Under the pieces are notes generated by a model that did not search any database, was not told the origin of the DNA, and saw only the letters and a program-made list of their open reading frames with translations. Shown here one piece after another: positions 27,090 to 58,893 of a DNA stretch of 64,000 nucleotides. Position 1 is the stretch's first letter; every line of letters starts with the position of its first letter. Made by a program: the position numbers and the translations under genes. Source of the DNA: Lunularia cruciata (lineage: Eukaryota > Streptophyta > Marchantiopsida > Lunulariales > Lunulariaceae); assembly GCA_948567375.1 (NCBI GenBank), contig OX419755.1, positions 63,988,944 through 64,052,943 on the forward strand, given 5' to 3'.

Positions 27090-28425
27090 ATGGATGCGCC
27101 GGGGGGACAATTTCCCGTACCTAGCTTTCCATTCTCAAACCCATTCCACATCAAGGTTATGTACATCCAGCGTGAGCAGATGAGAGTATCGCTAGTTTAT
27201 CACTTTGGTGCGGAATTCATGGACAGAGTGATGAACTCACCAAACCCGATGATTCTACCTATGGTGATATATGACAGAGAGTGGGATTTGACGATCTACA
27301 TTCTATTATGATAATATGGATATGAATGTCCCAAATCCTCTCCCTTTCAACACTCAAGTAGAAATCCGTTATGTAGTGAGGCCGAAATTGATGTTTAGAG
27401 ATTTTGTGGTTAGGAATTTTGGTGAGGAGTATTATCAACGAGTCATAGCTTCTAAGGTCCCAATGGTAGTTCCGATAGTTCGTGCGCCTTCCAGAGTGAT
27501 TATATTGACTCTGTATTGAAGTAGACGTTAGCAATTGGGTGTTGTAGGAACCATGGATCCGCAATTGCAAGAGCTGGTGCAAGGAATGCAAGGGATGTTG
27601 AATGAATTTTGAGAGATTAAGATGACCATGGAGACATTGCAAAGTCAAGTGCAGATCCTCAGGAACGATCAAGCCATGCAAGAAGAAGAGCCGTCTCAAA
27701 ACCCAGTACCTACGACTGAAGTACTTGGAGAGGCACCCGTGCCTACGAACCCTATCAACGATGAAGCCACATTGCTACTCCGGATGAAGAAGACCTACAA
27801 CATCGAGCCTTACAAGAGGCAGCATACGGTGGATTCTGTGCAGATGGCTCGAACCCGACTATGGGGATTGAGACAGAAGAATAGCGTACAAGAGTATGTG
27901 GAGGCATTTTTGGATCTACAAGTCGCAATTACCGACATGAGTCCAGCAGAGGCTCTCGACAATTTCAAATGAGGGTTGAAAGAGCGGATTCGCCAAGAAG
28001 TCATGGTGCAAAACCCCCGCACGGTATTTGAAGCTATTGCTTGTGCACAGAGAATAGCCGGAGCATTAGGTGGAGGTAAAGGAGTAGTTCCACCTCAACA
28101 TTATCGGGCAGAAATGCCACACATGGGTGGACCAGTACCGATGGAATTGGGCAACCTTCGATTCCGGGATCAAGGAGCACGGCCGCTTCAAGGAGAGCGG
28201 GGACGGGTAGAAGAACAAAGAGATGGAGTCCCACGAGGAGAAGGGACTCGAGGAGAACAACGCCGTTGTTACAATTGTGGTCGTATTGGGCACATATCTA
28301 CCAATTGTCGCACTCGTTTCCCTAGAGGCCCTCGGCCTTCGTACAGGCGATCTTTGAACAACATGGAGAGGCACATTGAAGAGGAGGAGGTAGAAACCAC
28401 TTCGGAAAACGAAGATCGCCAATAA
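27090..28425 (+). pseudogene. Element A gag
   Basis: The ATG at 27090 begins MDAPGGQFPV. The frame shifts near 27311 and continues to 28425 with stops at 27517-27519, about 27610 and 27970-27972. The middle part (KKTYNIEPYKRQHTV...LWGLRQKNSVQEYVEAFLDLQ) is the retrotransposon gag domain. Near the end is one zinc knuckle, CYNCGRIGHISTNC. The pol frame that follows is offset by one base. Several of the stops sit where Arg or Gln would be expected (TGA for CGA, TAG for CAG). Confidence 0.85.
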
Positions 28426-28520
28426 ATGTACCTTGCGGCCTTACTGGCTCAATAAGGAAGCAGAGAAGCGAGGGAAGGAAGAAGAATAATGCACAAAGAT
28501 CCCGAAAGGTAACCTCACAA

Positions 28521-30340: not shown

Positions 30341-31847
30341 AGATGCATTCACTCGCATGCCAATGGCCAACAACTTGGCGGTAGAGGTTAAGATTAACCC
30401 TGAATTCTGGCAAGAGATTCTAGCTGCTACAAAAACTGATCCACAGATTGTAGAAGCGCAATCGTCCAAAGGTGTCAACAGCACCCAAGGACTCACCTTT
30501 CGGGAGGGCCGATTGTGGATCCCAAATGTCCCAGAATTACGCACCACCATTCTAGCGGAATGTCATGATTTGGCCATTGTAGCTCATGTCGGAGTGGACA
30601 AGACTTTGGAGGCAGTCAAGCGCCATTATTATTGGCCCAAGATGAGCAACGACGTGATGGACTATGTGCGTAGCTGCCTACTTTGTCAACAAAACAAAGC
30701 TTCTAATCAAGCTCCTACAGGGCTCTTTCAACCTCTTCCCACTCCTACCCAACGTTGGGAACAAGTGAGTATGGATCTCGTCTGCTAATTACCCAAGACC
30801 ACCTCAGGGTTTGACTCCATTGTGGTCTTTGTGGACCGGCTTAACAAAATGATTCATGTACGCCATACCACCAAGGAAGTGACCGCTCCACAACTAGCTC
30901 AACTATACTTAGATGCAGTCTTTGCTCACCATGGCTTGTCTAGAGTACTCATCACCAATAGAGGCATCCAATTCACCAGTTTATTTTGGTGAACACTCTT
31001 TGGTTTCTTCAAAACCAAGTTGGCCATGTCTACAGCTTACCACCCACAAACAGATGGCCAAACAGAGCGGGCTAATCGCACGATTGAAGACATGTTACGC
31101 GGCTTCACCTTAGAAGAGCAAGAGAGGTGGGATACCCTACTACCGTTGGTGGAATTCGCTTACAACAATTCAGTGAATGCCTCCACCCAGGTCACTCCAT
31201 TCTTCCTCATGTATGGTGAGCATCCCTTCAAACCTTCTAGCTTGATGAAGATCCGTCCAGTGACTACCAAGGTTGATGTAGTCAACACATTTGTTTCTAG
31301 AGTCCAACAAGGTGTGGAGAGCGCCAAGCATAGGTTACAGATTGCACAAAATTGACAAAAGCAGTATGCTGATGCACACCATAGGCACGTGGAGTTCAAT
31401 GTTGGGGATCAAGTATGGCTATCGACAACCAACCTCACATTAGTTGGATCTCGTAAGCTCAGACCTCGTTTTATTGGGCCTTTCTCGATTCTTCGTCGCA
31501 TCGGCGCTGTGGCCTATCACCTTGAGCTACCACCACACATGAAGATCCATCCAGTGTTCCATGTCTCCCTATTACGCATATATGCTCCCAGATCAGGCCA
31601 AGGTACTTCCACACAAGACATTCGACCTTGTCCGATAGTCATTGATGGCATAGAGGAATATGAAGTGGAGCGGATTCTCCAAAAGCGCATGCGTGGTACT
31701 CGCCATCCGCGGGTGGAATATCTAGTACAATGGAAAGGTTACCCCCTCTATGAAGCAACCTGGGAACCCGCTACCAATTTGGCACGTGCACCAGTGTTGG
31801 TGCAAGCATTTGAGCAACAATTGCACAACGAGGACGTTGCGTCTTAA
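30243..31847 (+). pseudogene. Element A integrase and chromodomain
   Basis: The HHCC zinc region is HVGVDKTLEAVKRHYYWP...CLLCQQNK (30.58-30.70 kb). The core begins VSMDLVC, is cut by a TAA at 30786-30788, and its second catalytic position reads ITNRGIQF, where D-x-G is expected, so Asp has become Asn. The YHPQTDGQTERANRTIEDML segment keeps the Glu. After a TGA at 31353-31355 the last frame (31389-31847) ends in a chromodomain (YEVERILQKR...EYLVQWKGYPLYEATWEP) with its aromatic cage residues. Chromodomains guide chromoviruses to heterochromatin. Confidence 0.9.
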
Positions 31848-31860
31848 AAGGAGTGAGGTC

Positions 31861-32474
31861 TGTAATACCAAGGGTTAGCCATATGATCTAGATGTGAAAT
31901 TTGGTTTGGTAACATCTAGAATGATGTTATACATGATGGTCAAAATAGATCAGATAGAAGTATCACCAAAAGAGTACTTCTACTAATAGGGCAGAAACCG
32001 AAATAGACTTGAGAACCTTAGAACCAATAGCTAGACATATGATTTAAAGGTGAGAATTGGTTTGGTAACATCTGGAAGGATGTTACACATGATGGACTAA
32101 ACAGATCAGAAAGAGGTATCACCAAAAGGGGACTTCTACTAATAGAGTAGGAACTGAAATATGGCTGAAATCTTTGAAGGCAATTTCGGAGGCCTAAACG
32201 GATGAATTAAGCCTCGAAAATGTGCAGATTTCCCCCCCAATAGAGGTAAAGTTGGCCTTTCCTCCCCCCTAGTTTGTCTCGTTGAGAGCTTTCCAACGGT
32301 ACCTTACTCATGTGATTCTGAGATTCCTACAGGAAGATTCCCTAAAAGATTCCCTCCGATCAAAGCTCGTTTGACCAATCAGATAGGATCTAGACCAGAC
32401 AGGTCACCCATCCAAGTAAGTAATCCAAGGGTGGAGCTTGCTGACATGTCACCTATCTATGTCCCTAATCCTAT
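31861..32474 (+). repeat. Element A 3' LTR, first part
   Basis: The first 614 bp of the 3' LTR, interrupted after CCTAT (32470-32474) by element B; the rest is at 38064-38187. Matches 26214 onward. Confidence 0.95.
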
Positions 32475-32898
32475 TGTAAAAGACCAAAACCGAGGAGAGA
32501 AATAGGAGAATGGAAACTCACATTGGGACACTTGAATGAGGGAAAACTCCGAATGCCTAGCATGAGCTTCGGCCTTGGTATTTATAGGTAGCATACAAGT
32601 CCCTTGAAGCTTCTCAAGAAGCTTCCTTGAGCCGCTTTCTTGGAGGTGCAAGCCAAGTTAACTAGGAAGCTTCTCAAGAAGCTTCCTTCTAGAAGCTGCC
32701 TACTTGGCGTGCAAGCTAAGCTAGTTAGAAGCTTCTAGAAGCTTCCTTCTAGAAGCTACCTGCTTAGGGCGCAAGTTAACTAGTTAGGAAGCTTCCCAAG
32801 AAGCTTCTTAGATGCTTCTAGAATATTTTAGGCTATTTTGTCTTATTATCTACTTCATAAGCTCGACTAACTTCGTCGCTAAACTCCATATTGTTACA
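32475..32898 (-). repeat. Element B 3' LTR
   Basis: 424 bp, with plus-strand ends TGTAAAAGACC and ATATTGTTACA. It contains at least ten GAAGC/GCTTC pentamers, including GAA-GC-TTC-TA-GAA-GC-TTC at 32728-32745. The pol frame runs on through the purine tract and stops about 66 nt inside this LTR (32835-32833). Confidence 0.93.
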
Positions 32899-34440
32899 TA
32901 TTCCCCTGCCGCTAGTTGGTGACGTCCTCGTCGCCAGTGAAGCTTTGAATTCCTTGATGGCCGTCTGTGCATTTTGGAGGTGGGAAAGAGGTTCCCATGT
33001 GGCATCATGAAGGGGATACCCTTTCCAAAGGACCTTGTACTCCATATGTTGGCGACGACCGTGTTGAATATGGCGACGCGCAAGGATACGATCAACTTCG
33101 TACTCCTCATGATCATTGATAAGGACAGGAAGAGGGGGAGGTTGGACTCGAGAGGAAAAGGAAGAAGGGTTAGGAACAAAGGGTTTCAACTTGGAAACAT
33201 GAAAGACATGATGGATACGCATGTGACAAGGTAAGGCAAGTCGATAAGCAACATGAGAGATAATGTGGGTAATATCAAAGGGTCCTATCCAATTGGGAGC
33301 AAGTTTACGAACTTGGGTATCAAGTGGGAGAGGAAGGTTACTAGAGGATAGCATGACTTTATCACCAACTTCAAAGGTGAGATCACGACGATGATGGTCC
33401 GTATATTGTTTTTGGCGATTCTGAGCAACAAGGAGGTGAGATTTGGCTTGTTGGAGAGATTGGGATATAGTGGTCAAGAATGTGGAAGTATGAGGAACCT
33501 GAGAGGGAAGGGGAGCAAGAAGAGAATCTGGAACAAGCGGATCTTGGCCAAAATTGAGAAAGAAGGGAGAAAATCCGGTGCTTGCCTGTTTGGAATTGTT
33601 GTAGGCAAATTCTGCAGCTGCAAGACATTCATCCCAGTTGGTATGGTGGACATTGACAAAGGCCCGCAACATATCCTCCAATGTACGATTGGCACGTTCG
33701 GTTTGTCCATCAATTTGAGGATGATAGGCCGTGGACAAGGCAAGCTTGGTGCCGAGTATCTGGAAGAGTGCTTGCCAAAACTTCCCAGTAAATCAAGGAT
33801 CACGGTCGGAGATGAGTACACGTGGCATCCCATGATGCTTGAAGACATTGTCAAAGTAGATTTGCGCTAAGGTTGGAGCATCCACGATATCACAGGTTGG
33901 TGCCAAGTGGATTTGCTTACTAAGCTTATCCACAAACACCACAATTGCGGTGTGTCCTTGTTTTGTCTTTGGCAAGGATGTGATGAGATCCAAGCTCACA
34001 TGCTCCCAACGAGCGGATGGAATGGTGAGTGGTTGAAGGAGTCCACTCGGCTTTTGGTTGCTGGCCTTGTTCCGTTGGCAACTCTCACATGATTGGACAA
34101 AGTCTCAAACATCTCGTGTCATGTTGGGCCACCACCATTGGCGTTGGAGGGTGCCCAAGGTCTTGTCCACTCCTATGTGACCAGCTATTGGTAAATCATG
34201 GGCTTCTTGAAGGCGCACAAGTCGAAGATCACCTTTGGCTGGAACATAGATCTGGTCTGCATGGAATAAAAGGCCTTCCTTGAAGGAGAAGGTGTTGTAC
34301 TCCTTGTCGCATGCTGTCAGACGACCGTGTACCATTTGGAAGAAGGGATCTTGTCGTAGAGCTGATTGAAACTCATTATGGACCTTAGGGTCAATGGACA
34401 CCGTTGTAATTGCCGCCATGATGAAAGGAAGATCCTTCAA
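32833..34440 (-). pseudogene. Element B integrase and chromodomain
   Basis: One frame from 34440 to 32833, with stops at 34107-34105 and 33795-33793. It contains the zinc region HIGVDKTLGTLQRQWWWPNM, VSLDLITSLPKTKQGH (first Asp), ISDRDP (second Asp), and AYHPQIDGQTERANRTLEDM (Glu), so the DDE triad is intact. GPFDITHIISHVAYRLALP is the usual C-terminal integrase fold. The chromodomain is YEVDRILARR...EYKVLWKGYPLHDATWEP. The last 22 or so residues are encoded by the 3' LTR, so the original stop may lie elsewhere. Confidence 0.9.
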
Positions 34441-34449
34441 ATCAGGTCG

Positions 34450-36498
34450 TCATGATAGAGCATCGGGAATGACATGGAACCGACCTGGTTTGTACTCAAG
34501 TTTGATGTCAAACAATTGGAGTTGCTCTTCCCATCGATGATGCCGGCTCTTCATGTGCTCCAAGTGTAAGGTCTGCAACAATGGCTTGTGATCAGTTCAC
34601 ATGATCACTTGTTTCCCCAAGAGATAATGCCTCCATACCTTGGTGGCATATACCATTGCAAGTTGTTCCCAATCTCGAGCAGAGTAATTTCTTTCAGCTG
34701 TATTTAGTCAGCGAGACACAAAGGCAATAGGATGTAGTCCATCTGGAAATTCTTGTTGCAACACAGCTCCAATTGCAAAGTTAGAAGCATCAAAATCAAC
34801 CACACAAGGTAGTTGAGGATCATATGGTTGAAGAATGGGTCTTGAAGATACCATATGCTTTAACTTCTAGAATGCTTCTTCATGCATGGTGGTCCATTGG
34901 AAGCTCGAGTTCTTCCCCAAGAGCTCAGTCAATGGTACGGCCACGTGAGCATAATAGTGGATGAACCGTCGGTAAAAACTGGCCAGTCCATTGAATGCTC
35001 GTACTTCTGTAGCATCCTTCAGGGTAGGCCAATCAGTAATGGCCTTGATCTTCTCTTCTTCCATCTTGATCCCCTCTGATGAGATCTTATGACCCAAGAA
35101 GGTAACCTCCTTCTGCCAAAAAGCACACTTTGACTTCTTATAGTAAAATTTCCACTGTCGTAGTCGTCTTAGGACTTCTCGCACATGATTCACGTGTTCT
35201 GCCTCTGTCCTGCTATAGATTAAGATATCATCTAAGAACACCACCACAGACCGATCCAATAGTCCCTCCAACACTCGATGCATCTGATCCATGAAGACTG
35301 TTGGAGCATTAGTGAGTCCAAAAGGTAGAACTCTCCACTCAAAATGTTCATACCTTGTGTGAAAAGCAGTCTTTTGCACGTCCTCTCCTTCAATAGGAAT
35401 TTGCCAATAGCCACTACGAAGATCCAACTTGGAAAAGTAGCGTGCTCCACTTAGTTGATCAAGCAGGTCATCGATCCGAGGCAAGAGATATGCATTCTTC
35501 ACGGTTTGCTTATTGAGCCCACGGTAATCAATATAGAAACGAAGTCCTCCATCCTTCTTTGGAACAAATAGTACCGGTGCTCCCCATGGAGAGGTACTAT
35601 GTCGTATGAAATCCTTCTCCAACAACTCTATAAGTGTTGTTCGCAACTCCTCCAACTCTTTTGGTGAGAGCCGATAGATTGGTCTACTCACTGGAGTACT
35701 CCTTGGCAATAACTCAATCTTGAAGGGCATACCTCGATCGGAGGGTAATCCCTTTGGCAGATCATCCGGAAACACATTTGCAAACTCCTGAACTATCCGA
35801 TCAACCATTGCTTGATGCGGCACTTGGCCCTCCTCAGATTGTTCTTGTGCAATCGGCTTGATCCACACCGCGAATACAGACTTATCTTCCTCCAAAGCTT
35901 GCTCTATGGCTGCTTCATTAACAAACTTCCCTTCTAGGGACTCATCTCTCTTCCAAGCTTGCTCCATGGTTGCCTTCCTGGCAAACTTCCCATCTTGGGA
36001 CTCATCTCCCTTCCAGATTCGCTCTATGGCTACCTTCTTGACAAACTTCCCATCTTGGGACTGACTATTCTTAGGTGTCTTACTCAGAGGTGCCAGACAA
36101 CCTAATCGGAAATTCCTACCTTGGTGTTGTACTTGAATTTGGTGTCGGGTCCAATCAAATTGAACCTTATGACATTCAAGCCAAGGTAGACCTAGAATGA
36201 TATCATAGTGTAGAGGTGCCACTACAAACCTCATACATTCCAAATACTCCTTCCCAATCTTGAAGGTAACAGGATGCAAGGTGCGGAATGTAGAACCCTT
36301 TCTACCATCCGCCATCATCAAACTACTTCCAATCACTGGTTTGATAGGAATACCCAATTCCTTTGCTACTTGCATAGACATGCAATTCTCTGAACTTCCA
36401 GAATCAACCAAAATTCTACAACCCCGATTAGATATCATACCTTGCAAGTGAAGCAAACTTGCATAGGTCGAGCCTTCAATCCCATTGGAACTAATCAA
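34450..36498 (-). pseudogene. Element B protease, reverse transcriptase and RNase H
   Basis: A 543-codon stretch opens near 36498 and stops at 34869-34867; the same frame continues to the integrase. Protease: [12 protein letters not shown] spacer (36.05-35.85 kb) has three copies of an approximately 22-residue unit containing 'DGKF..KA..E.'. [46 protein letters not shown] and [11 protein letters not shown]. RNase H: VDFDASNFAIGAVLQQ and TDHKPLLQ. Stops at 34710-34708, 34599-34597 and 34452-34450 all read TGA where Arg (CGA) fits the family. Catalytic residues are preserved. Confidence 0.92.
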
Positions 36499-36524
36499 GC
36501 TCCTAGTAGGCGGCTCGAAATCTC

Positions 36525-37424
36525 CTACTGGGATTCCTCGTTTCCCGGATCATTCCGCTCCACAACCTCCACTTGGGCAACTTGTCGAGGTCGTCCATTC
36601 TTGAGTGGACATTTAGCAATGAGATGCCCCAATTGGCGACAATAAAAACAACCTCCATTTTGTCGTAATCTTTCTCTATCTACTGTGCCAAGTGGTCTTT
36701 GCTGGATAGCATCAATCTCCATTGGTACCGGTTCTTCCACTCGTGGTACTGGTAGGTTTTGTGTAGATCAAGGTCGAGACCAAGTTGTTGCAACTAAGGA
36801 ATCAAAACGCTCAGCCAATTGCATGGCTTCTTCTACGTTCTGTGGCTCTCGCATGGTCACCTCCAACCTGGTTCGTGACTTCAATCCTTGCACAAATCGG
36901 TCTAGAACTTCACCTTCTTGGATATCTGGAATTTGCATGATGATATTCTAAACTTGTGTGATGTAGCTTCTCACTGAGCCAATTTGCCTCAACTCCGCCA
37001 ATTTATCTCGTGCAGCTCGGGTGGCATTTATAGTCTGAAATCGACCAAGTATTGCATCCTTGAATTCTGCCCATGTCAAAATTGGTGTAACAATTTGTCG
37101 TTCAGCTCTTTCTACTCGAAATCGCCACCAAAGTTTTGCCACGCCATCCAACTGGCTAGAAGCCAAGAGAATTTGTTTCCGCTTGTCTTGAAGATTGGTG
37201 GCTTCAAAGTAACGTTCACAGTCAAACACAAAATTCTCCACTGTGCTTGGAAGATTCTTGCCTTCAAACACCTTGGGTTTTGGAAATCGAATGCGATCTT
37301 CTCCATCTCGAACTGGCGCTCTGTCTATCTGTTCTCGTCGTTGCTGGTCTCGTTCATCCAACAATCGAGTAAGATGCTCGATTTGTTGTTGCATTGCAAG
37401 GATAACATCCGGTATTGCCGCCAT
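36525..37424 (-). pseudogene. Element B gag
   Basis: ATG at 37424 opens MAAIPDVILAMQQQIEHLTR, a likely coiled coil. It is followed by the gag domain (FEGKNLPSTVENFVFDCERY...LWWRFRVERAE) and a zinc knuckle CFYCRQLGHLIAKC (about 36.63 kb). Stops at 36950-36948 (TAG) and 36770-36768 (TGA) interrupt one otherwise continuous frame. Both fit C-to-T changes of CAG and CGA. The pol frame is offset from gag by one base. Confidence 0.9.
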
Positions 37425-37681
37425 CGCTACTACTTTATTCCACTAACTCAATTTATCTAGTTGATTAACACATAGATACAACACGTCCACCGTTCTCCAT
37501 AAGTTACAACTGGAAGTATCAAGGGTTCCTCTTACACGGTGATCATATGTAGAAAATCCTGCCCAAAGCATGAGGTGATGAATTGTGTGAAACGATGCTT
37601 TGGTAATATCTGGACATGAAAGTCCCAATGGTTTGGCGGGAGTGGATTTGGTGGTCCATAAATTCCATCCATCCCATTCTT

Positions 37682-37693
37682 GCTCTGATACCA
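37682..37693 (-). promoter_or_regulatory. Element B primer binding site
   Basis: On the minus strand this reads TGGTATCAGAGC, complementary to the 3' acceptor end of plant initiator tRNA-Met. It lies one base from the 5' LTR. The same site in element A is at 26954-26965. Confidence 0.93.
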
Positions 37694-37694
37694 A

Positions 37695-38058
37695 TGTAAA
37701 AGACCAAAACCGAGGAGAGAAATAGGAGAATGGAAACTCACATTGGGACACTTGAATGAGGGAAAACTCCGAATGCCTAGCATGAGCTTCGGCCTTGGTA
37801 TTTATAGGTAGCATACAAGTCCCTTGAAGCTTCTCAAGAAGCTTCCTTCTAGAAGCTGCCTACTTGGCGTGCAAGCTAAGCTAGTTAGAAGCTTCTAGAA
37901 GCTTCCTTCTAGAAGCTACCTGCTTAGGGCGCAAGTTAACTAGTTAGGAAGCTTCCCAAGAAGCTTCTTAGATGCTTCTAGAATATTCTAGGCTATTTTG
38001 TCTTATTATCTACTTCATAAGCTCGACTAACTTCGTCGCTAAACTCCATATTGTTACA
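37695..38058 (-). repeat. Element B 5' LTR (promoter LTR)
   Basis: 364 bp. Read on the minus strand, the TATA box CTATAAATA lies at about 37807-37799. GAAGC/GCTTC arrays are clustered 20-150 bp upstream of it. It lacks a 60-bp unit found in the other LTR; the missing unit is bounded by the repeated GAAGCTTCTCAAGAAGCTTCC, so it was probably lost by recombination or strand slippage between these copies. Confidence 0.93.
37887..37906 (-). promoter_or_regulatory. Heat-shock-element-like array in element B LTR
   Basis: AGAAGCTTCTAGAAGCTTCC holds four alternating pentamers in perfect register (nGAAn nTTCn nGAAn nTTCn), the binding pattern of trimeric heat-shock factors. It lies about 80 bp upstream of the TATA box. 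The other LTR has the same array at 32727-32746. Additional paired GAAGCTTC sites nearby have wider spacing. Confidence 0.6.
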
Positions 38059-38063
38059 CCTAT

Positions 38064-38187
38064 GGTGGAGCTTCCTTGGAGGAGATCCTCTTTGTCTATA
38101 TAAAAAGAGAAGGTGCTCCCTTGGGGCATCGAATGTTGGAGTGTGCAATCTGTGTTTTCTCTCTTCTCTTGTCATCGGAGTATTACA
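38064..38187 (+). repeat. Element A 3' LTR, remainder
   Basis: GGTGGAGCTTCC to GAGTATTACA, continuing the 3' LTR after element B. It is preceded by the second CCTAT (38059-38063) and followed by TSD ACTTG. One base of the TATAATAAAG run is missing relative to the 5' LTR. Confidence 0.95.
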
Positions 38188-38460
38188 ACTTGTCAGGAAG
38201 TGCCACCAACTCAATCCACTTGGAGAGTGCTCCACCATCACCAAATCATACCAATGATGTCTCACAGTCATTGTTAAAGGTCTAGTGAAGTCCAAACTCC
38301 AACAATAACCCAATCCCATGATAGGTAATGGGTGTAATTGTGGCATAGGAGCATTAAATGATGCTCTAACTTGGTCACAAGCCACACATCTGGCAACAAA
38401 CTATTGTACCTTGGTCTGCATACCACACCACCAATAATGACTCTAGAGTTAGCTATATGT
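38188..38460 (-). pseudogene. Family C integrase, first half
   Basis: Minus strand: CDQVRASFNAPMPQLHPLP, the end of the zinc region and linker, then GYCWSLDFTRPL with the first catalytic Asp, then YDLVMVEHSPSGLSWWHFL. The frame then meets the family A insertion and continues at 26213. Upstream, around 38.41 kb, the reading YWWCGMQTKVQ is interrupted by a stop. Confidence 0.8.
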
Positions 38461-38480
38461 ACACTTTACTCCAAAATGTC

Positions 38481-40140
38481 CTAGCTCCTCATGAGCATGA
38501 CGGATAAACTGTGGTCCCATACATGCAAAAGGTGTATACCCTCCAATCTGAATTGTCTAGCTTGCTGAAGGACACAATCTCTCTCCTTGGCCCCAACTGT
38601 GCCACCCACAACACCATTGCAAAGATAGTCCATCACTAAGACGTCACCATGAATGTCTTGTTGAACTATACCAATATCTTCACTCTTTGGATCTATGACC
38701 TCAATAACTCCTCCGGTATTCACTTCGAGAGATACCACCAAGGCCTCAAAAAATATATAGAGAAAGGTAGATGCATGCCAACTTGGCACTATCTCATTAT
38801 ATGTCTCACCATGCCAACATGCTCCGGTTTGATCCTACTAGCTGGGACATGGGTTTCTACTCAACCCATCTACATCATGGTTCACCACTCCAGGTCGTGA
38901 AATCGTGAACATTGGAAATGAACAATCATGAAATCATACTCCTATAAAATCAAAGCCCATTGTGCAAGCTTCCTTGAAAGCTTGTTGGACTCCATCAACC
39001 ACTTCAGCGGTTGATAATCAATGATGAGAGTGAAGAGGTTACCAAATAGATAACACTGGAAATGTGCTACTGCCCAAACTACTACCAAGCACTCTCCCTC
39101 ATATGAACTATACTTTACCTTTGCTAAATTGTTGGAACGACTACCATAGGCCACCACAAACTCCTTCCCCTCATCATCATGCTTGGTGAGCACCGCTCCA
39201 AGCCCCAACATACTCCAATTAGTATGAACCTGAAATGGTCGTCCTCTAATCGGTCTACTCAAAATAGGAGCAAATGTCAACCTCTCCTTTAGTTCTACAA
39301 AATCTCTCTCTTGCTCATCTCCCCAACACCACTCCTGTGTAAGCTTGCTTAGCTTCATCAAGGCCTTGGCAATGGCACTAAATCCTCTCACATAATGGTA
39401 ATAGAAGTTTGCCAACCAAAGGAAAGATCGCACTTTGCTCACATACGTAGGTTGAGGAATATGTAGAATAGCCTCCACCTTGGTCTGTTGAACACCAAGT
39501 CCTCTAGAGTACATAGTGTGAACCAAATACTCAACTTGCTCATGGAAGAACCTACACTTCCCAAGATCTAATTTGAGTCCATGAGATCTCAACCTCTCAA
39601 ACACCTCCAACAATTGTCTCTCATGCTCCTCCACAAGAGTGCTATAGACCAAAATGTCATCAATATAGCACTAAGCAAAATCCAATCCAGCTAGGATCCT
39701 ATCCATGATCCTCTGGAACTTGGTAGGAGCATTTTTTAACCCAAATGGTATGAACCTCCATTGATATAACACATCTTGGACAAGACAACATTTTGGGCTA
39801 TTGAGCCGTGAAGATCAATAGCCCAGAATGTTGTCTTGGACTTGTCCTCCTCTCTGATTGACAATTGATGATAACTCGCTCAAAGATCCAAAGTATTGAA
39901 GACCTTTGCATGCCAAATCACATCAAAAATCTCCTTTGGTGTAGGCATGGCATACCAATCAGCCCTGATCTATCCGTTGATAGGACAGTAATCTCCACAC
40001 ATCCGCCTATCTATGTAGTTGCCATGCATATCCTTCTTGGCTGGCATCACTGTCACCAATGCATACTCTCCATGTGAAATCTCTACCAAACCAACCTCAA
40101 AAAGGTCTCTACTCTAACTCTGAATCAATGTCCTCTCCAT
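38481..40140 (-). pseudogene. Family C copy 1 reverse transcriptase, RNase H and integrase N-terminus
   Basis: The RT start region near 40.1-39.85 kb includes a YALVTVMPAKKD-like segment and a D-Y-C-P-I-N motif. The active site reads CYIDDILVYS (about 39.65 kb), preceded by a stop. The longest frame (39652-38942) carries RLRSHGLKLDLGKCRFFHEQVEYL, the connection domain, and RNase H ([16 protein letters not shown], where the first catalytic Asp reads Asn; EGECLVVVWAV; DYQPLKWL). The part after 38.79 kb matches the linker and integrase N-terminus of copy 2. A 21-bp inverted repeat disrupts RT at 39782-39837. Confidence 0.82.
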
Positions 40141-40374
40141 GTTATTATAACAATAAGGATGTCAAAAAATTGGTGTATTGCTAGTCAGCTCAATCCATAT
40201 ACTAGGTCCTTTCTGAGCACCCAAATCCTTCATACTGAAGCCAAAACAACTTGTGTAGCTCCTCAAGAACCTCCAAACCCTCCATTTTTCCTCTCCAATA
40301 AGCTTACATCCAAGATCTGGCTCCCAAGTATCCTTTGTAATTGTTGCAAGAGTAGAAGACGTATTGACTAGCTG

Positions 40375-41690
40375 CTACACTAGGCCCTTGGGAGCAATAG
40401 TGTTATGCCCCTGACCACTAGAGGTCCTAACCTTGGTGTGAAAAACTCCCTCCACTCTGGCCGCAAGCTCCACATGTCCTCTAGCTCCATCCCAAGTGGA
40501 CCAAGGGTGTAATCCAAGTAGCCCATGCTCACCTGGATGGACTCCAAGTAGACTACTCTCCCTAGTAGCTACTGGTTGTGTCCGAAGAATACCATGTCCA
40601 CTTGTTCCATCACCTCTAGTATGTGCTTGAATTGTCCCGATAGGCACAGGGCTCACAAGTGTCCGAGTGGTGATGCCTATCAAGCGCATCCTACGCTACT
40701 CAGCTAAGCCAAGGCTCACAATCTAGGTCAAATAGTTCAAGTCCATAGCCTGACCTAACTCCTGACACTTTGATGCCTTTGATACTACTTGGAATAGAGG
40801 TAATACTAGTGTGTAAACCCATCACCCACTCTCTCTCATCCGTGTTGGGCTCCTCCAACTATTGTAACTGTGAGTCCCAAACAAGTCTAGGTCCTCCCTC
40901 TCAAAAAGCATGAGAGCTTGGGAAACTCATGAGTGTGGGAAATGCAGCTCTAGGTTGTCCAACTAAGTTCACTATTGCTATAGGTGACCTATCAGCCATT
41001 ACCACCATCTAAGATTGATGCCCAACATCCAAGATGTCATCAACAAGGATGTGGTCAAGTCGTTGAATCCCATCATAAGCACATTGTAAAACCTCTTTGG
41101 GTAAGAGGTTTGTCTACCAAAGACAAAGATGATGAGCCCGTGATCCCACTCTGGCTGGATTTAGCAATATAGCAGGTCCCATCCAAGAATAGACTTGATG
41201 TGTACTCACCACCACTCTGGTGCAAGAATCACCCATCAAAGGAGGTTCTCTAAAAGTAAGCTAGAGAAATGGAATGATGAACTTAGAGATGTTGTAGTAT
41301 CCATAACATCTCCCAAAACACACCAGTATAAGGATCCTAAAGACCCAAACTCCATCTAGCACATGTATGTCCTTGACATGGCCATCCAAAAATCACCAAA
41401 TGAAAAGGCCCATGTCTCTCTAGATCATGCGCTCCCATTAAGGAAATATTTGTTGGTAGGGCCTTCTAGTAACCTCTAACTATTGACATCAATAATAACT
41501 CTGGATACCAATAGGCCAAGTGTGCCACATGATGTAGAGAGACTTGCCTAGCAATCTCATCTCTCTCTACATACAAGTACCTCTGTGCTCGTATACCCGC
41601 TTGTAAAACCACAACTAGTTGTGTTAATCCCACTAAACAACTCCAATAGATATATCCCCTCTATTGGATATTGCCAAGCAATGAGTGTGG
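40375..41690 (-). pseudogene. Family C copy 1 cytosine-5 DNA methyltransferase
   Basis: Minus-strand frames give motif I LELFSGIN (about 41.64 kb), then after a 2-nt deletion QAGIRAQRYLYVERDEIARQ (motif II region, Glu for SAM ribose), HLVIFGWPCQGH with the catalytic Cys codon at 41378-41376 (motif IV), and LGL*DP..GVFWEML. Further on are the segment matching copy 2's ENV motif (shifted here), the Arg-poor motif VIII region, and a C-terminal GQAMDLN-like stretch near 40.74 kb. The last frame (40689-40375) is the linker to RT. Arrangement and spacing match C5 methyltransferases, which flip out cytosine and attack C6 with the PCQ cysteine. It lies between protease and RT, so it is a domain of the retroelement polyprotein. 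It is dead by stops and shifts. Confidence 0.82.
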
Positions 41691-45422: not shown

Positions 45423-45868
45423 TATAATCAGATCATTTACAACTCAAATCAACTGAACTCAAATCAATACTTGATCTAATCATCAACAACTTGTCAACAA
45501 TAGGGCACTGATTACAATCAAGCCACACCCACTCTAGCTAAGAGAATCCAAGTGATGCTTACCGGCTTTTGGTCCATTCTAGCCAAGAACTCGAATGCTC
45601 AATTAGAGAAGTGAGCTCTCTGGAGCTGCACTTCCAAGGTATACTCTTGATTTCAACCTAGGTCTCATCCCAACGGTCCCACTGATGGCACACCTGAAGG
45701 TACAGATGGTGCAAGTGACAGTACGCCCCATCATGAAGTCAGTACTCCAAACACAAAATATGACCATCAGAAAGTAGTCTATGAGTAATTGCCTAAATGT
45801 TTCTAACTACTATCACTAGAACTCTAGTGTCCGAGCAATCTAGATAAGACACTACAAATGGCGTGATA
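45423..45868 (-). repeat. Family C copy 1 5' LTR
   Basis: 446 bp, matching 52072-52518 in reverse complement (GGCGTGATA end, TATAATCAG end). Just outside it, after seven bases, a family A solo LTR has inserted, so the outer flank and any target duplication are obscured. Confidence 0.8.
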
Positions 45869-52071: not shown

Positions 52072-52518
52072 TGTCACGCCATTTGTAGTTTTGCATCTAG
52101 ATGCTCATACACTAGAGTTCTAGTGATAGTAGTTAGAGGCATTTTGGCCATTACTCATAGACTACTTTCTGACGGTCAGATTTTAGGTTTAGGGTACTGA
52201 CTTCATGGTGGGGCCCACCGTCACTTGCACCATCTGCACCATCAGGTGTGCCGTCAGTGGGACCGTTGGGAGGAGACCTAGGTCAAAATCAGGGGTATAC
52301 CCTGGGAGTGCAGCTCTAGAGAGCTCACTTCTTTGATGTTGAGCCTTCGAGTTCCTGGCTAGAGTGGATAGAAAACCGGCGAGCGTCACCTAGAGTCTCT
52401 ATGCTAGAGTGAGTGTGGCTTGATTGTAATCAGTGCCCTATTTTTTGCAAGTTGTTGAGGATCAAATCAAGTATTGATTTGAGTTTGATTGATTTGAGTG
52501 GTAAACCATCTGATTACA
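52072..52518 (+). repeat. Family C copy 2 5' LTR
   Basis: 447 bp from TGTCACGCC to CTGATTACA, matching the inverse of 45423-45868 and the core of 23990-25013. A primer site is not clear after it (ATCAAAAAAG, compare ATATCAGAGAAG in copy 1). Confidence 0.78.
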
Positions 52519-53437: not shown

Positions 53438-53507
53438 AGGTACTTGCAATTGCAACTTGCGGTTGCAATTGATGGTTTTGGTTTGCTGTTGCGGTTACTT
53501 GGTCACA

Positions 53508-54900
53508 ATGGAGTTCTTTGGGGATTCCAGAGGAGTTAGCCTTGCAATATGTAGTGGGTTTACTTGGAGTAGCGCTCAATATCAGCTTGTATCTCAGGTC
53601 CTAGTGAGGGAGGAGATTGACTCTGAGTTGGAGTTCAACACAGGAGCTGATCTAGTTGAGAGTGCACTTGTTGTGTCTGCATTGTTGTTGTGGGACATGG
53701 ATGAGATTTATGGGGCCTCCAAAGGCCCTAGGCGTTACTCTGGTATAGTGGGTACCATTGAGTTGGATGACTTCATCCAAGAGTTTGATAGTTGGTGTGA
53801 TCTGCAGCAGATGCGGAACCCGACTTTGTTCACACCTTTCATGGCATAGAAGGGGTTGTTTCAGCACTTGGAGGGTCCGCCGATAGACAAATACCATGAG
53901 TTCAAGAGAGCTCATTTGGAGGAGATTGAGTTATGGAGACAGTATTGGTCTCCAAACTATGTCTCTATCACTTCAGGATTGGTGGCCAGGAGTAGATCGG
54001 CGTTACCTACGAGTTCTAGCTCAAGTAGTGTTGGTGGAGCTAGTGGAGGTGCAGTTGCTGGAGATAGTGTTACCACGAGTGGAGGTACCGCTGTAGGAGG
54101 TGGTGTGGTATCGGGGTTTAACCCCATGGTGGAGTTCTTCTTATGTTTGAGGTAGAACTACCAAGGAGTACGGACTGACAAGTTGAGGAGCTTGCAAGAG
54201 TTCCATCGGAAGGCTGGAGAGAGCCTACGCAAGGCATACACTCGCATGAGACGGCTGATCAGTTTCACTTAGGGAGTTACTGAGGCCTAAGCAGTCTAGT
54301 TTTGGTATGGGATACTAGATAGGGAGTTGCAACGTAGAGTTTGTGATGCTACGTTGTTACTGGCTACTTCACCTACTTTGGCAGTGGTCTTTGGTTTGGC
54401 TAAATGTATTGAGCTCAACATGGTAGAGGAGAGAGTGGTGACATTTGGATTTGGTAGGGAGACCTCATCCACGGCTATGACTTCTTCTAGAGTGTAGCAA
54501 AGTGCACCATGCCTTGTTGGTTTTTGACGACAGGGTGGACAGCCCAAATCCTATGGAGCGAGTGGAGGGCCTAGTGGAGTTAGACCCTTACCTTCATTTG
54601 CGGGTCAGCAGTAGCCAATGAGTGGTAGTGTTGCTTGTTGGACTTGTGGTGGACCTCACCATCGGGGAGAGTGTACTCAAGGCAGTGGACCTGATACCTC
54701 AAGTGCATCATAGCCAGCATAGAGGTAGTGTGAGCATTGTCATAGATTTGGTCACACTAGTGACCGGTGTTTTGACCTACACCCGAAGTTACGGAGTGGT
54801 AGGGCTGTTATAGTAGGTAGTAGAGGAGCTCCAGTTCATGGAGGACGAGGTGGTTGAGGTGGTGGTAGAGGATCTACACCTAGTAGGGGTGCAATACCTG
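53508..54900 (+). pseudogene. Family C copy 2 gag
   Basis: ATG 53508 starts MEFFGDSRGVSLA. The gag core runs through TIELDDFIQEFDSWCDLQQ, MRNPTLFTPFMA (stop TAG at 53847-53849, where copy 1 has TGG) and IELWRQYWSPNYVSI, then a Ser/Gly/Val linker. After further stops come LRSLQEFHRKAGESLRKAYT and two zinc knuckles: CWTCGGPHHRGEC and CEHCHRFGHTSDRC (54.63-54.79 kb). The second knuckle has canonical CCHC spacing. Many stops replace Gln, Arg or Trp codons. Confidence 0.83.
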
Positions 54901-55343: not shown

Positions 55344-56398
55344 ATGCGGCATCTTTTGTTTTCAGCCAGTGACATGTTTACATTGGGAGTTGACCCAACC
55401 CTAGTGTTCCGGTTGGCTGCCACGTTGTGTGAGAGTAGGGATGGTGCGGTTCCTACATCTAGAGCAGAGGTGGTTGATAGTGGAGCTGACTTGGTTGAGG
55501 AGCATGGGATCCATTCAACAACCAGTGGTTTATGGCAGGCAGCAGCAGGTAGACTGGAGGAGTTGCCAGCTAGACTGGCCTTTGAGGGAGCACAGTTTAC
55601 ACCTGGTGTTGTCCTATTGGATAACTAGAGGAGGATTTTCCATTTGGTGGACCTTCAGGGAAGGTCTATACACCACAGAGAGTCTTGTTAGACTCTGGTG
55701 TGCAACCTCTTATGTTGGGGAAGGCGGCAATTGTCGGTCTGGAGTTATGAAAGACTGATGTGGAGAGGTGTCCATTTCAGATCTAGACATCTCTAGGTGG
55801 TGGTTTGACATAGTACATCACACGTGGGGAGCTTGTTGTTCAGGTTCAACCTGGTCGTCCGACTGATAGCTCAATGGTGAGAGCTTAGGCTATTGTGACA
55901 ATAGCTGAGTCATGTGATGTGCTAGTTGGGGGAGCAGTGTTATACCCCATGGATTTTAGCATTGACTATTGGGAGGAGATAACCTCTTATAGACCTGGTT
56001 GGCAATCTGGCAAGGGACGGGTATGTCACCTACATGTACGCTATAGTAATGACAATCTTGGCTCATTATAGTCCGGGACCATGGCAACATCACTTTTAGC
56101 TTTCAGTGGTGCAGTTACTTGGCCTGGTGACTTGTTGGAAGGGAACGCCCATGCAGAGGATACTCTAGTACCAGAGGAGATCACTCGGCTTTGGAGTACA
56201 AGTGGGATTGTTCCATCCACCTTGGATGTTCCATTGTGGAATTCAGAGGAGGCATTGCAACAACATGCAGATCAATTGGTGCAATAGGCTTGGAGTGGAG
56301 CCTTTGTACCATTAGGAGATGAGTGTGAGGATGAGCCTCCAGAGTCGATTGCTTTGACACCTCTAGATACCGCACTCATTGCTTGGCAGTATTCCGTA
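55344..56398 (+). pseudogene. Family C copy 2 protease and spacer
   Basis: A frame with MRHLLFSASDMFTLGVDP and SRAEVVDSGADLVEEHGIHS precedes the protease signature LLDSGVQPLMLG (about 55686-55720, one base shift away). A spacer conserved with copy 1 follows (VLYPMDFSIDYWEEITSYR; SGAVTWPGDLLEGNAHAEDT; LDVPLWNSEEALQQHADQL). The spacer leads straight into the methyltransferase, so it may be its N-terminal part; I know no function for it. Confidence 0.65.
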
Positions 56399-57372
56399 GA
56401 GGAGATATGTCTATTGGAGTTGTTTGGTGGGATTAGCACCGGACTAGCTACGGTGTTATAGGCGGGTATCTGAGTATAGAGGTACTTGTATGTAGAGAGA
56501 GATGAGACTGCTAGGCAAGTCTCTCTACATCATGTGGCACACTTGGCCTATCGGTATCCGGAGTTATTATTGATGTCAGCAGTCAGAGGTTACCAGAAGG
56601 CTCTACCATTTCCTTAATGGTGGCGCATGACCTAGAGAGACATGGGCCTATTCACTTGGTGATTTTTGGATGGCCATGTCAAGGATAGACACATGCAAGC
56701 CACATTTTGGGTCTTTAGGATCCTCATTCTGGTGTGTTTTGGGAGATGTTACGAATACTACAACATCTCCAGGTTCATCAATCCGTTTCTCTAGCTTACC
56801 TTTTGGAGAACGTTCCTTTGATGGATGATTCTTGCACCAGAGTGGTGACAAGTACACATTAGGTCCATTCTTGGATGGGACCTACTGTATTGTTAGATGC
56901 AGCCAGAGTGGGATCACAGGCTCATTGTCTTTGTCTTTGATGGATGAACCTCTTACCCAAAGACATTCTATAACGCGCTTATGATGGGATTTAGCGACTT
57001 GACCACATCCTTGTGGATGACATCTTGGATGTTGGACATCAATCTCAGACAGTGGTAGTGGATGATAGGTCACCTATGGCAATGGTGAACCTAGTTGGAC
57101 AGCCTAGAGCCGCATTTCCCACACTCATGCATTTCCCAAGCTCTCATGCTTATCAAGAGGGAGGACATGGACTTGTTTGGAACTCACAATTATAGCAATT
57201 GGTGGAGCCCAATGCTGATGAGAGAGAGCGGGTGATGGGTTTTCGCACCGGTATTACCGTTGTTCTAGTAGTGTCAGAGGCATCCAAGCATCAAGTGTTA
57301 GGTCAGGCCATGGACCTAAATTGTTTGACCTGGATTGTGAGCATTGGCTTGGCAGAGCAACGTAGGATGCGC
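56399..57372 (+). pseudogene. Family C copy 2 cytosine-5 DNA methyltransferase
   Basis: Motif I is CLLELFGGISTGLATVL (56405-56457). Motif II is RYLYVERDETARQ. Then comes VAHLAYRYPELLLMSAVRGY, and after one frameshift near 56600 motif IV LVIFGWPCQG with the catalytic Cys at 56677-56679. SGVFWEMLRILQHL and YLLENVP follow (motif VI, ENV at 56806-56814). The motif VIII region reads ARVGSQAHCLCL, two expected Arg appearing as Cys. A target-recognition-like segment follows (ILDVGHQSQTVVVDDRSPM...). The C-terminal motifs are VEPNADERERVMGFRTG and VLGQAMDLNCLTWIV. This is the full motif order of a C5 methyltransferase of about 325 residues, small for a eukaryotic enzyme but complete for a catalytic domain. 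About ten stops interrupt it. Which plant methyltransferase family it is closest to cannot be decided by eye. Confidence 0.87.
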
Positions 57373-58440
57373 TTAATAGGCATCACCACTCGGACACTTG
57401 TGAGCCTTGTGCCTATCAAGACAATTCAGGCACATGATGGGGGCGATGGACCGAGTGGACATGGTATTCTTGGGACACATCTTGTGGCTACTAGGGAGAG
57501 TGGTCTACTTGGAGTCCATCCAGGTGAGCGTGGGCTACTTGGATTACACCCTTGGTCCACATGGGATGCAGCTAGAGGACATGTGGAGCTTGCAACCAGA
57601 GTGGAGGGAGTTTTTCACACAGAGGTTGGGACCTCTAGTGGTCGGGAGCATGACACTATTGCTCCCAAGGGCCCAATATAGCAGGTTCTTTAGTAGGTTC
57701 TTCCATGAGCAGGTTGAGTATTTGGGTCATACTATCTACCCCGGAGGACTTGGTGTTCAACAGACCAAGGTGGAGGCTATTGCACGTATTCCTCGGCCTA
57801 CAGATGTGAGTAGAGTGTGAGCATTCCTTGGGTTGGCAAACTTCTATCGACGTATGTTAGACAATTTAGTGCCATTGCCAAGGCCTTGACAAAGCTAACC
57901 AAGCTTACACAAGAGTGGTGTTGGGGAGATGAGCAGGAGAGAGCTTTTGTAGAGCTCAAGGGGAGGTTACCATGTGCTCCTATTTTGAGGAGACCGATCA
58001 AAGGATGACCATTTCAGGTTCATACTGATTGGAGTATGTTGGGGCTTGGAGCGGTGCTCACCCAACATGATGATGAGGGGAAGGACTTTATGGTGGCCTA
58101 TGCTAGTCGCTCCAACAATTCAGCGGAGGCAAAGTATAGTTCATATGAGAGAGAGTGCTTGGCATTAGTTTGGGCAGTAGCACATTTTTGATGTTACCTA
58201 TTTGGTAACCCCTTCACTCTCATCACTGATCATCAGCCATTGAAGTGGTTGATGGAGTCCGACAAGCTTTCAGGGGAGATTGCACGATGGGCTCTGATTT
58301 TATAGGAGTATGATTTCACGGTTGTTCACAGACTTGGAGTGGTGAACCATGATGCAGATGGGTTGAGTAGAAACTCATGTCCTAGCCAGCAAGGTCAGAC
58401 TAGAGCATGTTAGCATGGTGAGACAGATGAGGAGATGGTG
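57373..58440 (+). pseudogene. Family C copy 2 linker, partial RT and RNase H
   Basis: The linker after the methyltransferase (RLIGITTRTLVSLVP...APKGP) ends at a stop near 57680. The sequence then jumps to RFFHEQVEYLGHTIYPGGLG, the end of RT, because the catalytic part is deleted. RNase H follows from about 58015: [47 protein letters not shown] and VVNHDADGLSR. Its active-site Asp and Glu are present. Stops at about 57819 and later break the frame. Confidence 0.8.
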
Positions 58441-58464
58441 TCAAGTTAGCATGCATCTACCTTT

Positions 58465-58893
58465 TTGTGTTTATTTTCAGAGGCTTTGGTGGTATCTCTC
58501 TCAGCGCATACAGGAGGAGTTATGGAGATTACAGATCCAGAGAGTGAAGATATTGGTATAGTTCAGCGAGACATTCATGATGATGTCTTATTGATGGACT
58601 ATCTTTGCACTAGTGTTGTGGATGGCACAGTTGGGGCCAAGGAGAGAGACCGTGTTCTTCAGCGAGATAGATGGTTTAGATTGGAGGGTAGACACCTTTT
58701 GCATGTATGGGAGGATGGTAGAGTACAAGTAGTACCACTTCCATGTCAGAGACCACAGTTGGTTCGTCATGCTCATGAGGAGCTAGGACATTTTGGAGTA
58801 AAGCGTACATATAGCTTAATCCATAGTCATTATTGGTGGCGTGGTATGCAGACTATGATTGTTTCGACATTTTGGAGTAAAGCGTACATATAG
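58465..58893 (+). pseudogene. Family C copy 2 integrase N-terminus (truncated)
   Basis: A 142-codon open stretch: an acidic linker (ITDPESEDIGIVQRDIHDD) matching copy 1 at 38.7 kb, then LVRHAHEELGHFGVKRTYSL and HSHYWWRGM, the His pair of the integrase zinc region. It stops inside a 79-bp tandem duplication, and no core domain follows. Confidence 0.8.

What the first reader, a model, noticed from the sequence alone, without database searches (positions are those of the whole stretch)
56399..57372. A Ty3/gypsy retrotransposon that encodes a cytosine-5 DNA methyltransferase (copy 2)
Seen: the motif series ELFGG, YVERD, GWPCQG, ENVP and GQAMDLN in the right order and spacing, between a protease signature (55.69 kb) and RNase H/integrase pieces of one element. 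Established: these are motifs I, II, IV, VI and X of C5-MTases, with Cys in PCQ as catalytic nucleophile. DNMT-bearing retrotransposons are, as I recall, reported from dinoflagellates and a charophyte alga. Inference: this is a land-plant lineage of such elements, able to methylate its own cDNA or insertion sites and so influence its own silencing or target choice. No annotation of this architecture would come from ORF length, because stops cut the domain into pieces.
Basis: partly seen in the sequence, partly recalled or inferred. Interest (0 to 1): 0.95.

Follow-up and report, generated by a model that had tools for sequence, protein, structure and literature searches.

The report
Plant jumping gene carrying DNA methyltransferase
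A common jumping gene in this plant genome carries its own enzyme of the kind that puts methyl marks on DNA, the very marks plants use to silence jumping genes, and its layout suggests that it makes that enzyme in the same large amounts as its particle shell.

Summary
Window 56399-57372 holds a decayed but complete C5-methyltransferase (MTase) domain of a Ty3/gypsy-type element; a second copy on the minus strand is split by a nested insertion. The window's genome (566 Mb) has 1,011 exact matches to the element's ORF junction. This fits UAG-CAR-YYA, the leaky-stop context of tobacco mosaic virus; a distant relative has TAG CAA TCA. Repeats are split (A-coding-B-A-B), with 4-bp target duplications. 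The MTase is DNMT3-class and the best conserved part of ORF1 against Marchantia, with relatives in Calypogeia, Riccia and Sphagnum. Closest published: KnitGypsy-Dnmt3 of the alga Klebsormidium (same enzyme class, element class and repeat arrangement; MTase in the Pol ORF). Ten searches of an open-licence library showed no bryophyte report. Best reading: a gag-level, packaged de novo MTase acting on the element's cDNA or insertion site; activity, packaging and readthrough are inferred. None of eight fetched copies has both ORFs unbroken.

The parts
52072..52516 (+). copy 2, terminal repeat A1 (starts TGTCACGCC)
   Evidence: 81% identity to A1 of L014
53402..57678 (+). copy 2, ORF1 region gag-PR-MTase (gag Met at 53697), broken by stops and frameshifts
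   Evidence: 91.1% nt identity to the ORF1 stretch of L014; Met mapped and found
54729..54770 (+). gag zinc knuckle CEHCHRFGHTSDRC (another knuckle-like motif maps near 54636); by motif only
55682..55699 (+). aspartic protease motif VLLDSG; by motif only
   Evidence: relatives score PF13650/PF13975 at this place
56399..57372 (+). DNMT3-class C5-MTase domain, motifs I, II, IV, VI, VIII, IX, X
   Evidence: motif numbers beyond the finding's are recalled
57679..57681 (+). in-frame TAG followed by CAG (leaky-stop context, cut by the deletion just after)
57693..58853 (+). copy 2, ORF2 remnant: end of RT, RNase H, integrase H2C2; the start of ORF2 is deleted and the 3' end truncated
   Evidence: 92.7% nt identity to ORF2 of L014 from base 794; Pfam
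45425..45866 (-). copy 1, terminal repeat A1
   Evidence: 79% identity to A1 of L014
40378..44589 (-). copy 1, ORF1 region gag-PR-MTase (gag Met near 44318)
   Evidence: 86-88% nt identity; motifs
40735..41646 (-). copy 1, MTase core, motifs I to X
40375..40377 (-). copy 1, in-frame TAG followed by CAG CTA
38188..40374 (-). copy 1, ORF2 first part: RT (YIDDIL 39667-39650), RNase H, H2C2
26215..38187 (.). nested insertion of other gypsy-type elements splitting copy 1 (not part of the element)
   Evidence: ORF2 match breaks at base 2177-2182 on both sides
25289..26214 (-). copy 1, ORF2 last part: integrase core end and PHD finger (25429-25292)
   Evidence: 87% nt identity; PHD zinc ligands legible
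25016..25123 (-). copy 1, repeat B1
   Evidence: 85% identity to B1 of L014
23992..25011 (-). copy 1, repeat A2, interrupted at 24702-24122 by another repeat
23890..23992 (-). copy 1, repeat B2 (3' end of the element)
   Evidence: 92% identity to B2 of L014

Best explanation
A high-copy Ty3/gypsy-type retroelement of a land plant (very probably a bryophyte) carries a DNMT3-class cytosine-5 methyltransferase as a normal, selected part of its coding sequence. Shown: the layout A1 - ORF1(gag-PR-MTase) - TAG CAR YYA - ORF2(RT-RNase H-integrase-PHD) - B1 - A2 - B2; young copies and a high count in this genome; conservation of the MTase. Inferred, step by step: most ribosomes stop at the UAG, so MTase is made and packaged at gag level, while a minority read through to give RT and integrase; the packaged enzyme methylates the element's new cDNA before integration, or DNA at the insertion site; the PHD finger on integrase helps choose chromatin. 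The likely pay-off is that the cDNA looks like host DNA or enters a tolerated chromatin state. Both window copies are dead relics.
For: Stop-free frames: L009 and L010 ORF1 of 1,428 codons, L013 and L014 ORF2 of 1,037 codons, with one TAG between the ORFs in the same frame; Pfam on L010 ORF1 and L014 ORF2. TAG CAG CCA in 11 of 12 loci not chosen on the junction and TAG CAG CTA in the twelfth; 1,011 exact genome matches to the junction pattern with TAG, 0 in the reversed control. Relative L061 has TAG CAA TCA and the same two ORFs. Only 5 of 2,378 TAGs in the window, both strands, are followed by CARYYA. Split repeats, TG...CA ends, 4-bp duplications in 6 of 7 copies. Profile best hit DNMT3A 2.6e-22, DRM 1e-11, no DNMT1/CMT within 0.01. 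MTase 73% identical to Marchantia P0101 against 46-52% for linkers and 40% for the tail; MTase pN/pS of window copies 0.48 and 0.51 against neutral simulations of mean 0.81 and 0.86 (2 of 60 and 0 of 60 as low).
Against: No activity, readthrough, packaging or methylation was measured. None of the eight stretches L009-L016 has both ORFs unbroken, so current mobility is not shown. Of 42 genome loci, 23 have at least one stop in the MTase and 2 have lost the Glu of motif VI. In PMC5890265 the KnitGypsy-Dnmt3 domain gave no methylation in yeast (called inconclusive there, since human DNMT3B failed too), while SymbioDIRS-Dnmt3 domains did. The same paper notes that elements without DNMT also transpose. 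Decay of the window copies is strongest at CG and CHG, which ordinary host methylation explains without self-methylation. Some relatives have MTase and RT in one protein without a stop (P0117, P0124, P0137), so gag-level dosage is not universal. Being fused to gag and protease does not prove packaging.
Confidence: 0.7

Rival explanations
1. The MTase domain is kept but no longer acts on DNA: it has become an RNA methyltransferase or a nucleic-acid-binding part of the particle.
For: KnitGypsy-Dnmt3 and SymbioLINE-Dnmt domains showed no DNA methylation in yeast (PMC5890265). The retro-MTases sit on a long branch away from host DNMT3.
Against: The Pro-Cys of motif IV is kept in 42 of 42 genome loci examined, 12 of them not chosen on the junction; G, W, P, Q of motif IV and E of motif VI are invariant in a 32-row alignment of relatives, the catalytic C nearly so.
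Confidence: 0.2
2. The UAG is an ordinary stop; ORF2 is expressed by another route (internal initiation, splicing, a second transcript).
For: One Marchantia gene model (P0105, sequence) jumps from the end of the MTase into RT and skips the stretch between; P0110 also holds both domains. No readthrough was measured.
Against: The same frame stays open directly after the stop in six of six junctions read; the six bases after UAG fit CARYYA in two lineages with different letters.
Confidence: 0.15
3. A host DNMT gene or pseudogene was inserted by chance into one element here.
For: The window copies alone are broken.
Against: Both window copies carry it at the same place; seven of seven fetched copies that reach upstream have it in frame with the knuckle or protease motif; single proteins from Marchantia (P0101), Calypogeia (P0067) and Sphagnum (P0017) hold the protease motif and the MTase. 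Host DNMT3, DRM and CMT genes are separate loci.
Confidence: 0.01
4. Self-interference: the element's MTase helps the host silence new copies, so the element limits itself and its host survives.
For: The window copies decayed mostly by C to T at CG and CHG, with 20 of 29 stops in the compared ORF1 part of copy 2 being CAG to TAG. PMC5890265 raises this possibility in its discussion.
Against: Host CG and CHG methylation gives the same pattern. A count of 1,011 junctions, with 97-99% identical A repeats in five copies measured, does not look like strong self-limitation.
Confidence: 0.15

Closest known systems
KnitGypsy-Dnmt3 of Klebsormidium nitens (de Mendoza et al. 2018, PMC5890265; text parts 1-4 of 7 and found passages read)
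   Same: Gypsy-type element with a DNMT3-class MTase; repeats arranged as in DIRS while the domains are gypsy-type; MTase under purifying selection there and by similar signs here.
   Different: There the MTase is described in the Pol ORF; here it is at the end of the gag-PR ORF, before a UAG-CAR-YYA stop. The words PHD and readthrough do not occur in the paper's main text. The host here is a land plant. Sequence kinship could not be tested, since no K. nitens sequence was at hand.
SymbioDIRS-Dnmt3 and SymbioLINE-Dnmt of Symbiodinium (PMC5890265)
   Same: Retroelements with an own DNMT; the DIRS type has split repeats and a DNMT3-class domain shown active on CG in yeast.
   Different: Tyrosine recombinase or LINE machinery, not gypsy integrase; the paper treats them as independent captures.
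Chromoviruses (Ty3/gypsy with an integrase chromodomain; recalled)
   Same: A chromatin-reading domain at the integrase C-terminus.
   Different: PHD finger in place of a chromodomain, MTase present, split repeats in place of LTRs.
TMV-type leaky stop UAG-CAR-YYA; rice RIRE2 gypsy cited as a readthrough candidate (PMC2754532, passages read)
   Same: Stop codon and the six bases after it.
   Different: Here the stop lies between MTase and RT; readthrough is not measured.

Membership tests
C5-cytosine DNA methyltransferase (PF00145) | profile match over the cut-off and motifs I, IV (PCQ), VI (ENV), VIII, X in order | tested here: met
   L010 ORF1 30.5 bits, cut-off 22; the window piece itself 21.8 bits, just under; motifs
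DNMT3 class | closer to DNMT3 than to DNMT1/CMT, DRM or bacterial MTases | tested here: met
   a tree with 16 phage or bacterial MTases joins retro-MTases with DNMT3 at 99/99, on only two DNMT3 rows
Active DNA methyltransferase | transfers methyl groups to DNA | not testable with these tools
   needs an assay
Ty3/gypsy retroelement | gag knuckle, PR, RT, RNase H, DDE integrase in this order | tested here: met
   RT to integrase by Pfam; knuckle and protease by motif here, by Pfam only in relatives
Ty3/gypsy retroelement | two full-length identical LTRs | tested here: not met
   A1 only at 5', B1-A2-B2 at 3'
Ty3/gypsy retroelement | TG...CA ends and short target-site duplication | tested here: met
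   4 bp in 6 of 7 copies, read by eye; L013 is rearranged at 3'
Ty3/gypsy retroelement | tRNA primer-binding site after the 5' repeat | tested here: inconclusive
   sequence after A1 read by eye only; no clear site
DIRS | tyrosine recombinase | tested here: not met
   ORF2 has rve integrase and no other recombinase family
KnitGypsy-Dnmt3 | DNMT3-class MTase in a gypsy element with DIRS-like repeats | tested here: met
   against the legend of Fig. 4 in PMC5890265
KnitGypsy-Dnmt3 | MTase in the Pol ORF | tested here: not met
   MTase ends ORF1 before the TAG
KnitGypsy-Dnmt3 | common descent with the K. nitens element | not tested
   no protein named as K. nitens was returned by the three protein searches
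UAG-CAR-YYA readthrough site | UAG followed by CARYYA, open same-frame extension | tested here: met
   definition from PMC2754532
UAG-CAR-YYA readthrough site | measured readthrough | not testable with these tools
   needs a reporter assay

The most novel reading that the evidence does not exclude
One retroelement lineage took in a DNMT3-class enzyme before the bryophyte lineages sampled here split, and has since made it as a gag-level particle component by placing it before a leaky UAG. Every particle would carry a de novo methyltransferase together with a chromatin-reading integrase, so the element writes methylation on its own DNA at birth instead of only receiving it from the host.
Probability: 0.35. 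Interest if true: 0.92.

Novelty: new variant of a known kind. Interest (0 to 1): 0.75.

Why it matters
DNA methylation is a main way plants silence jumping genes, so an element that keeps its own methyltransferase through long evolution must gain something from methylation. The published algal case left the role open. Here the enzyme sits in the gag-protease ORF, the family is large, and relatives are annotated in Marchantia polymorpha, a model plant, so the question becomes testable: what is methylated, when, and to whose benefit.

Tried and rejected
Rejected: chance motif series; inserted host DNMT gene; LTR element with misread repeats (the 3' side reads B-A-B in seven of seven copies, and a full A1 stands at the 5' end in six of seven). 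Left open: an RT tree meant to tell whether the RT-RNase H-MTase-IN order arose by a move inside one lineage or a second capture (weak support). The first MTase tree had only two outgroup rows and cannot say from which host gene the enzyme came; a tree with phage and bacterial rows (16 of the 60 loci returned) puts plant host DNMT3 nearer to human DNMT3A (a 200-residue fragment) than to the retro-MTases, on too few rows to trust. CpG and C-to-T counts do not tell self-methylation from host methylation. A viral-contig scan with P0101 confirmed no relative; the one with alignment A1 gave 53 loci with 24-53% identity, used only as outgroup. A first junction pattern (answered) had one N too few and found 0; one search had the same fault and did not complete. 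The corrected pattern with any codon in place of TAG did not complete, so the share of copies with another codon there is unknown; a pattern for the B1-A2 junction did not complete either.

Papers: PMC5890265 parts 1-4 of 7 and passages; PMC12344493, PMC8594673, PMC10952607, PMC2754532, PMC8226279 passages only; others search listings only. No report of bryophyte DNMT-bearing retroelements was seen in the ten paper searches; the library holds open-licence papers only.

Full report
1. The observation. The five motifs are at the stated place and in order. The first two are read in one frame, the rest in another. A single decayed frame of copy 2, stops masked, matches PF00145 at E=1.5e-4, 21.8 bits, just under the curated 22. 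Downstream the same element gives RT_RNaseH at 5.4e-36 and Integrase_H2C2 at 4.7e-11. Copy 1, on the minus strand, is about 83.5% identical along the shared length and keeps an 820-base stretch that copy 2 lost; RVT_1 matches fall there.

2. The element in its own genome. The window lies in G000, 565.8 Mb in 74 contigs. A PF00145 search scored 123 of 2,161 candidates, all 123 over the cut-off, many in long open frames. A few of the 123 are host genes: L001 is DNMT3, L003 CMT, L002 DRM; L004 looks like a second DNMT3 by eye. Eight stretches (L009-L016) were fetched for their long open frames; L015 begins only inside the MTase. L009 and L010 have a stop-free ORF1 frame of 1,428 codons (gag Met at codon 99); L013 and L014 have ORF2 of 1,037 codons. 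None of the eight has both ORFs unbroken. Domain order in ORF1 is zinc knuckle, protease motif, MTase; in ORF2 RT, RNase H, H2C2, integrase core, PHD. In L010 only PF00145 reaches E 0.01 in ORF1, so knuckle and protease rest on motifs here; the protease motif of L010 reads DFG instead of DSG. Relatives do score protease and zinc-knuckle profiles at these places.

3. The stop between the ORFs. In six of six junctions read (L009, L010, L011, L013, L014, L016), ORF1 ends in TAG and the same frame goes on with CAG CCA. In 12 loci not chosen on the junction (L005-L016), 11 have TAG CAG CCA and one TAG CAG CTA; copy 1 has TAG CAG CTA, copy 2 TAG CAG and then its deletion. A pattern with TAG at this place has 1,011 exact matches in the genome (499 and 512 on the two strands; reversed control 0 and 0). 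Thirty more loci (L031-L060) were picked for identity at the junction and say nothing about it. CARYYA after UAG is the context needed for readthrough in TMV (PMC2754532, passage). It follows only 5 of 2,378 TAGs in the window, copy 1's junction being of that form, and 7 of 1,891 in six loci that include the six junctions. A contig filed under a cyanobacterial MAG (L061, CADCWO010000201.1), which by its content I take to be eukaryotic contamination, carries a relative whose MTase is 50% identical to P0003. Its ORF1 ends TAG CAA TCA, and ORF2 of 1,047 codons follows in frame with RT to PHD. So the context is kept with different letters. Of 139 proteins held, my patterns found both PR and MTase in 11 over 900 aa; 10 of these end less than 200 residues after motif X and one (the Marchantia gene model P0105) runs into RT (the patterns miss some proteins). 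Counter-examples without a stop exist: P0137 is one 2,072-aa protein with knuckle, PR, MTase, RT, RNase H, integrase; P0117 and P0124 join MTase and RT.

4. The ends. Copies with flanks show A1 (about 448 bases, TGTCACGCC...) at 5' and B1 (about 107) - two bases - A2 - B2 at 3': the 3' side in seven of seven, a full A1 in six of seven (L010 matches over 77 bases only). In six of seven, the 4 bases before A1 are repeated after B2 (aacc, actc, gagg, cata, ttta, tagc; read by eye); L013 is rearranged at its 3' side. A1 and A2 of five copies are 97-99% identical and of L013 89%, so five insertions look young; I give no years, since no rate is known for this host. L061 shows the same B-then-TGTCACG junction. 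Such split repeats are typical of DIRS elements; PMC5890265 reports them for KnitGypsy-Dnmt3, whose domains are 'typical of Gypsy' (Fig. 4 legend). How a DDE-integrase element copies them is unknown to me; no clear primer site was seen.

5. The window copies in that light. Copy 2: A1 52072-52516, ORF1 region 53402-57678, ORF2 remnant 57693-58853. Copy 1: A1 45866-45425, ORF1 region 44589-40378, ORF2 40374-38188, a 12-kb nested insertion, ORF2 end with PHD 26214-25289, B1 25123-25016, A2 25011-23992 (itself interrupted), B2 23992-23890. Their MTases hold 10 (copy 2) and 9 (copy 1) stops. Against L014, copy 2 has C to T at 24.8% of CG, 22.7% of CHG and 4.3% of CHH sites; copy 1 at 40.8, 31.5 and 6.1%. 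Of 29 stops in the last 1,142 codons of ORF1 in copy 2, 20 are CAG to TAG. This is the mark of plant CG and CHG methylation, by whichever enzyme.

6. The enzyme. A profile of 32 relatives finds DNMT3A best among solved structures (2.6e-22), DRM 1e-11, HhaI 2.8e-8, DNMT2 7e-7, and no DNMT1 or CMT within 0.01. Against the Marchantia ORF P0101, identity is 73% in MTase (245 of 335), 65% gag, 60% knuckle, 62% PR, 52 and 46% linkers, 40% tail; RT is 80% identical to P0105 but 60% to P0110. In 42 genome loci the MTase is free of stops in 19 (8 of the 12 not chosen on the junction, L015 read only in part), Pro-Cys of motif IV is kept in all 42, and the Glu of motif VI is lost in two. Within the genome, pairwise pN/pS over 14 copies is 0.54 for MTase and 0.43 for RT, and 0.62 for gag-PR over six. 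Window copies against L014 give MTase 0.48 and 0.51, against neutral simulations with the observed spectrum of mean 0.81 and 0.86 (2 of 60 and 0 of 60 as low). L011 and L013 against L014 give MTase 0.39 and 0.37 (2 of 40 and 2 of 39 as low), while their whole coding stretch is less clear (9 of 40 and 2 of 40). RT of copy 1 gives 0.48 (3 of 60); RT of copy 2 rests on 11 changes only. This points to selection on the MTase in the lineages between copies, not in the dead copies.

7. Relatives. The stop-masked search found 100 proteins, with the names Calypogeia fissa, Sphagnum, Riccia sorocarpa and Marchantia polymorpha among them, most of the rest unnamed. A second search found 44, a third 13; the last two scored only the 8,000 candidates sharing most words. 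L010's MTase is 73-74% identical to Calypogeia P0004 and Marchantia P0101. In a 66-row tree (7 of 73 extracted rows dropped as short or partial), 22 rows including this genome, Calypogeia, Sphagnum and Marchantia form a group at 100/99; six other rows, among them the four with the MTase directly before integrase (P0138, P0125, P0127, P0072), group at 100/99. That the host is a bryophyte is inferred from these kin and from its DNMT3, DRM and CMT genes; no tool named it.

8. How it most likely works. Shown: anatomy, conservation, copy number. Established elsewhere: CARYYA makes UAG leaky; some retroelement DNMT3 domains methylate CG in yeast, though the KnitGypsy one did not (PMC5890265). Inferred: gag-level synthesis, packaging, methylation of cDNA or the insertion site, PHD-guided insertion. 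I put about 0.45 on cDNA or insertion-site methylation as such and higher on the anatomy; 0.7 is a joint judgement.

9. Known or new. The kind (retroelement with DNMT3-class enzyme) has been in print since 2018. New here, as far as ten searches of an open-licence library show: land-plant members across liverworts and Sphagnum, MTase on the gag side of a leaky-stop context, the PHD finger, and 1,011 junction matches in one genome.

Noticed in passing
4033-8364 (+): Ty1/copia-type element with an unbroken 1,443-codon frame and a very low CpG ratio (0.12).
   Followed up: no
26215-38187: Nested gypsy-type elements with their own repeats, 26214-26513 and 31861-32160 identical over 300 bases, splitting copy 1.
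   Followed up: partly
11715-12341 (-): 208-codon frame that looks like a plastid-targeted host protein (CGLD27-like, recalled, not tested).
   Followed up: no
21096-21394, 26214-26512, 31861-32159, 45876-46174: Pairs of about 143-base units spaced 156 bases inside LTR-like repeats, also just upstream of copy 1.
   Followed up: no
P0138, P0125, P0127, P0072, P0095: Relatives, perhaps algal, with the MTase between RNase H and integrase (P0138), directly before integrase, or after RNase H (P0095), some with a C-terminal PHD finger: a second architecture.
   Followed up: partly
L061 (CADCWO010000201.1): A contig titled cyanobacterial MAG holds a DNMT-bearing retroelement unit with 48-base overlapping ends; likely contamination of the bin.
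   Followed up: partly
58787-58944 (+): A 79-base tandem duplication (94% identical) at the broken 3' end of copy 2.
   Followed up: no
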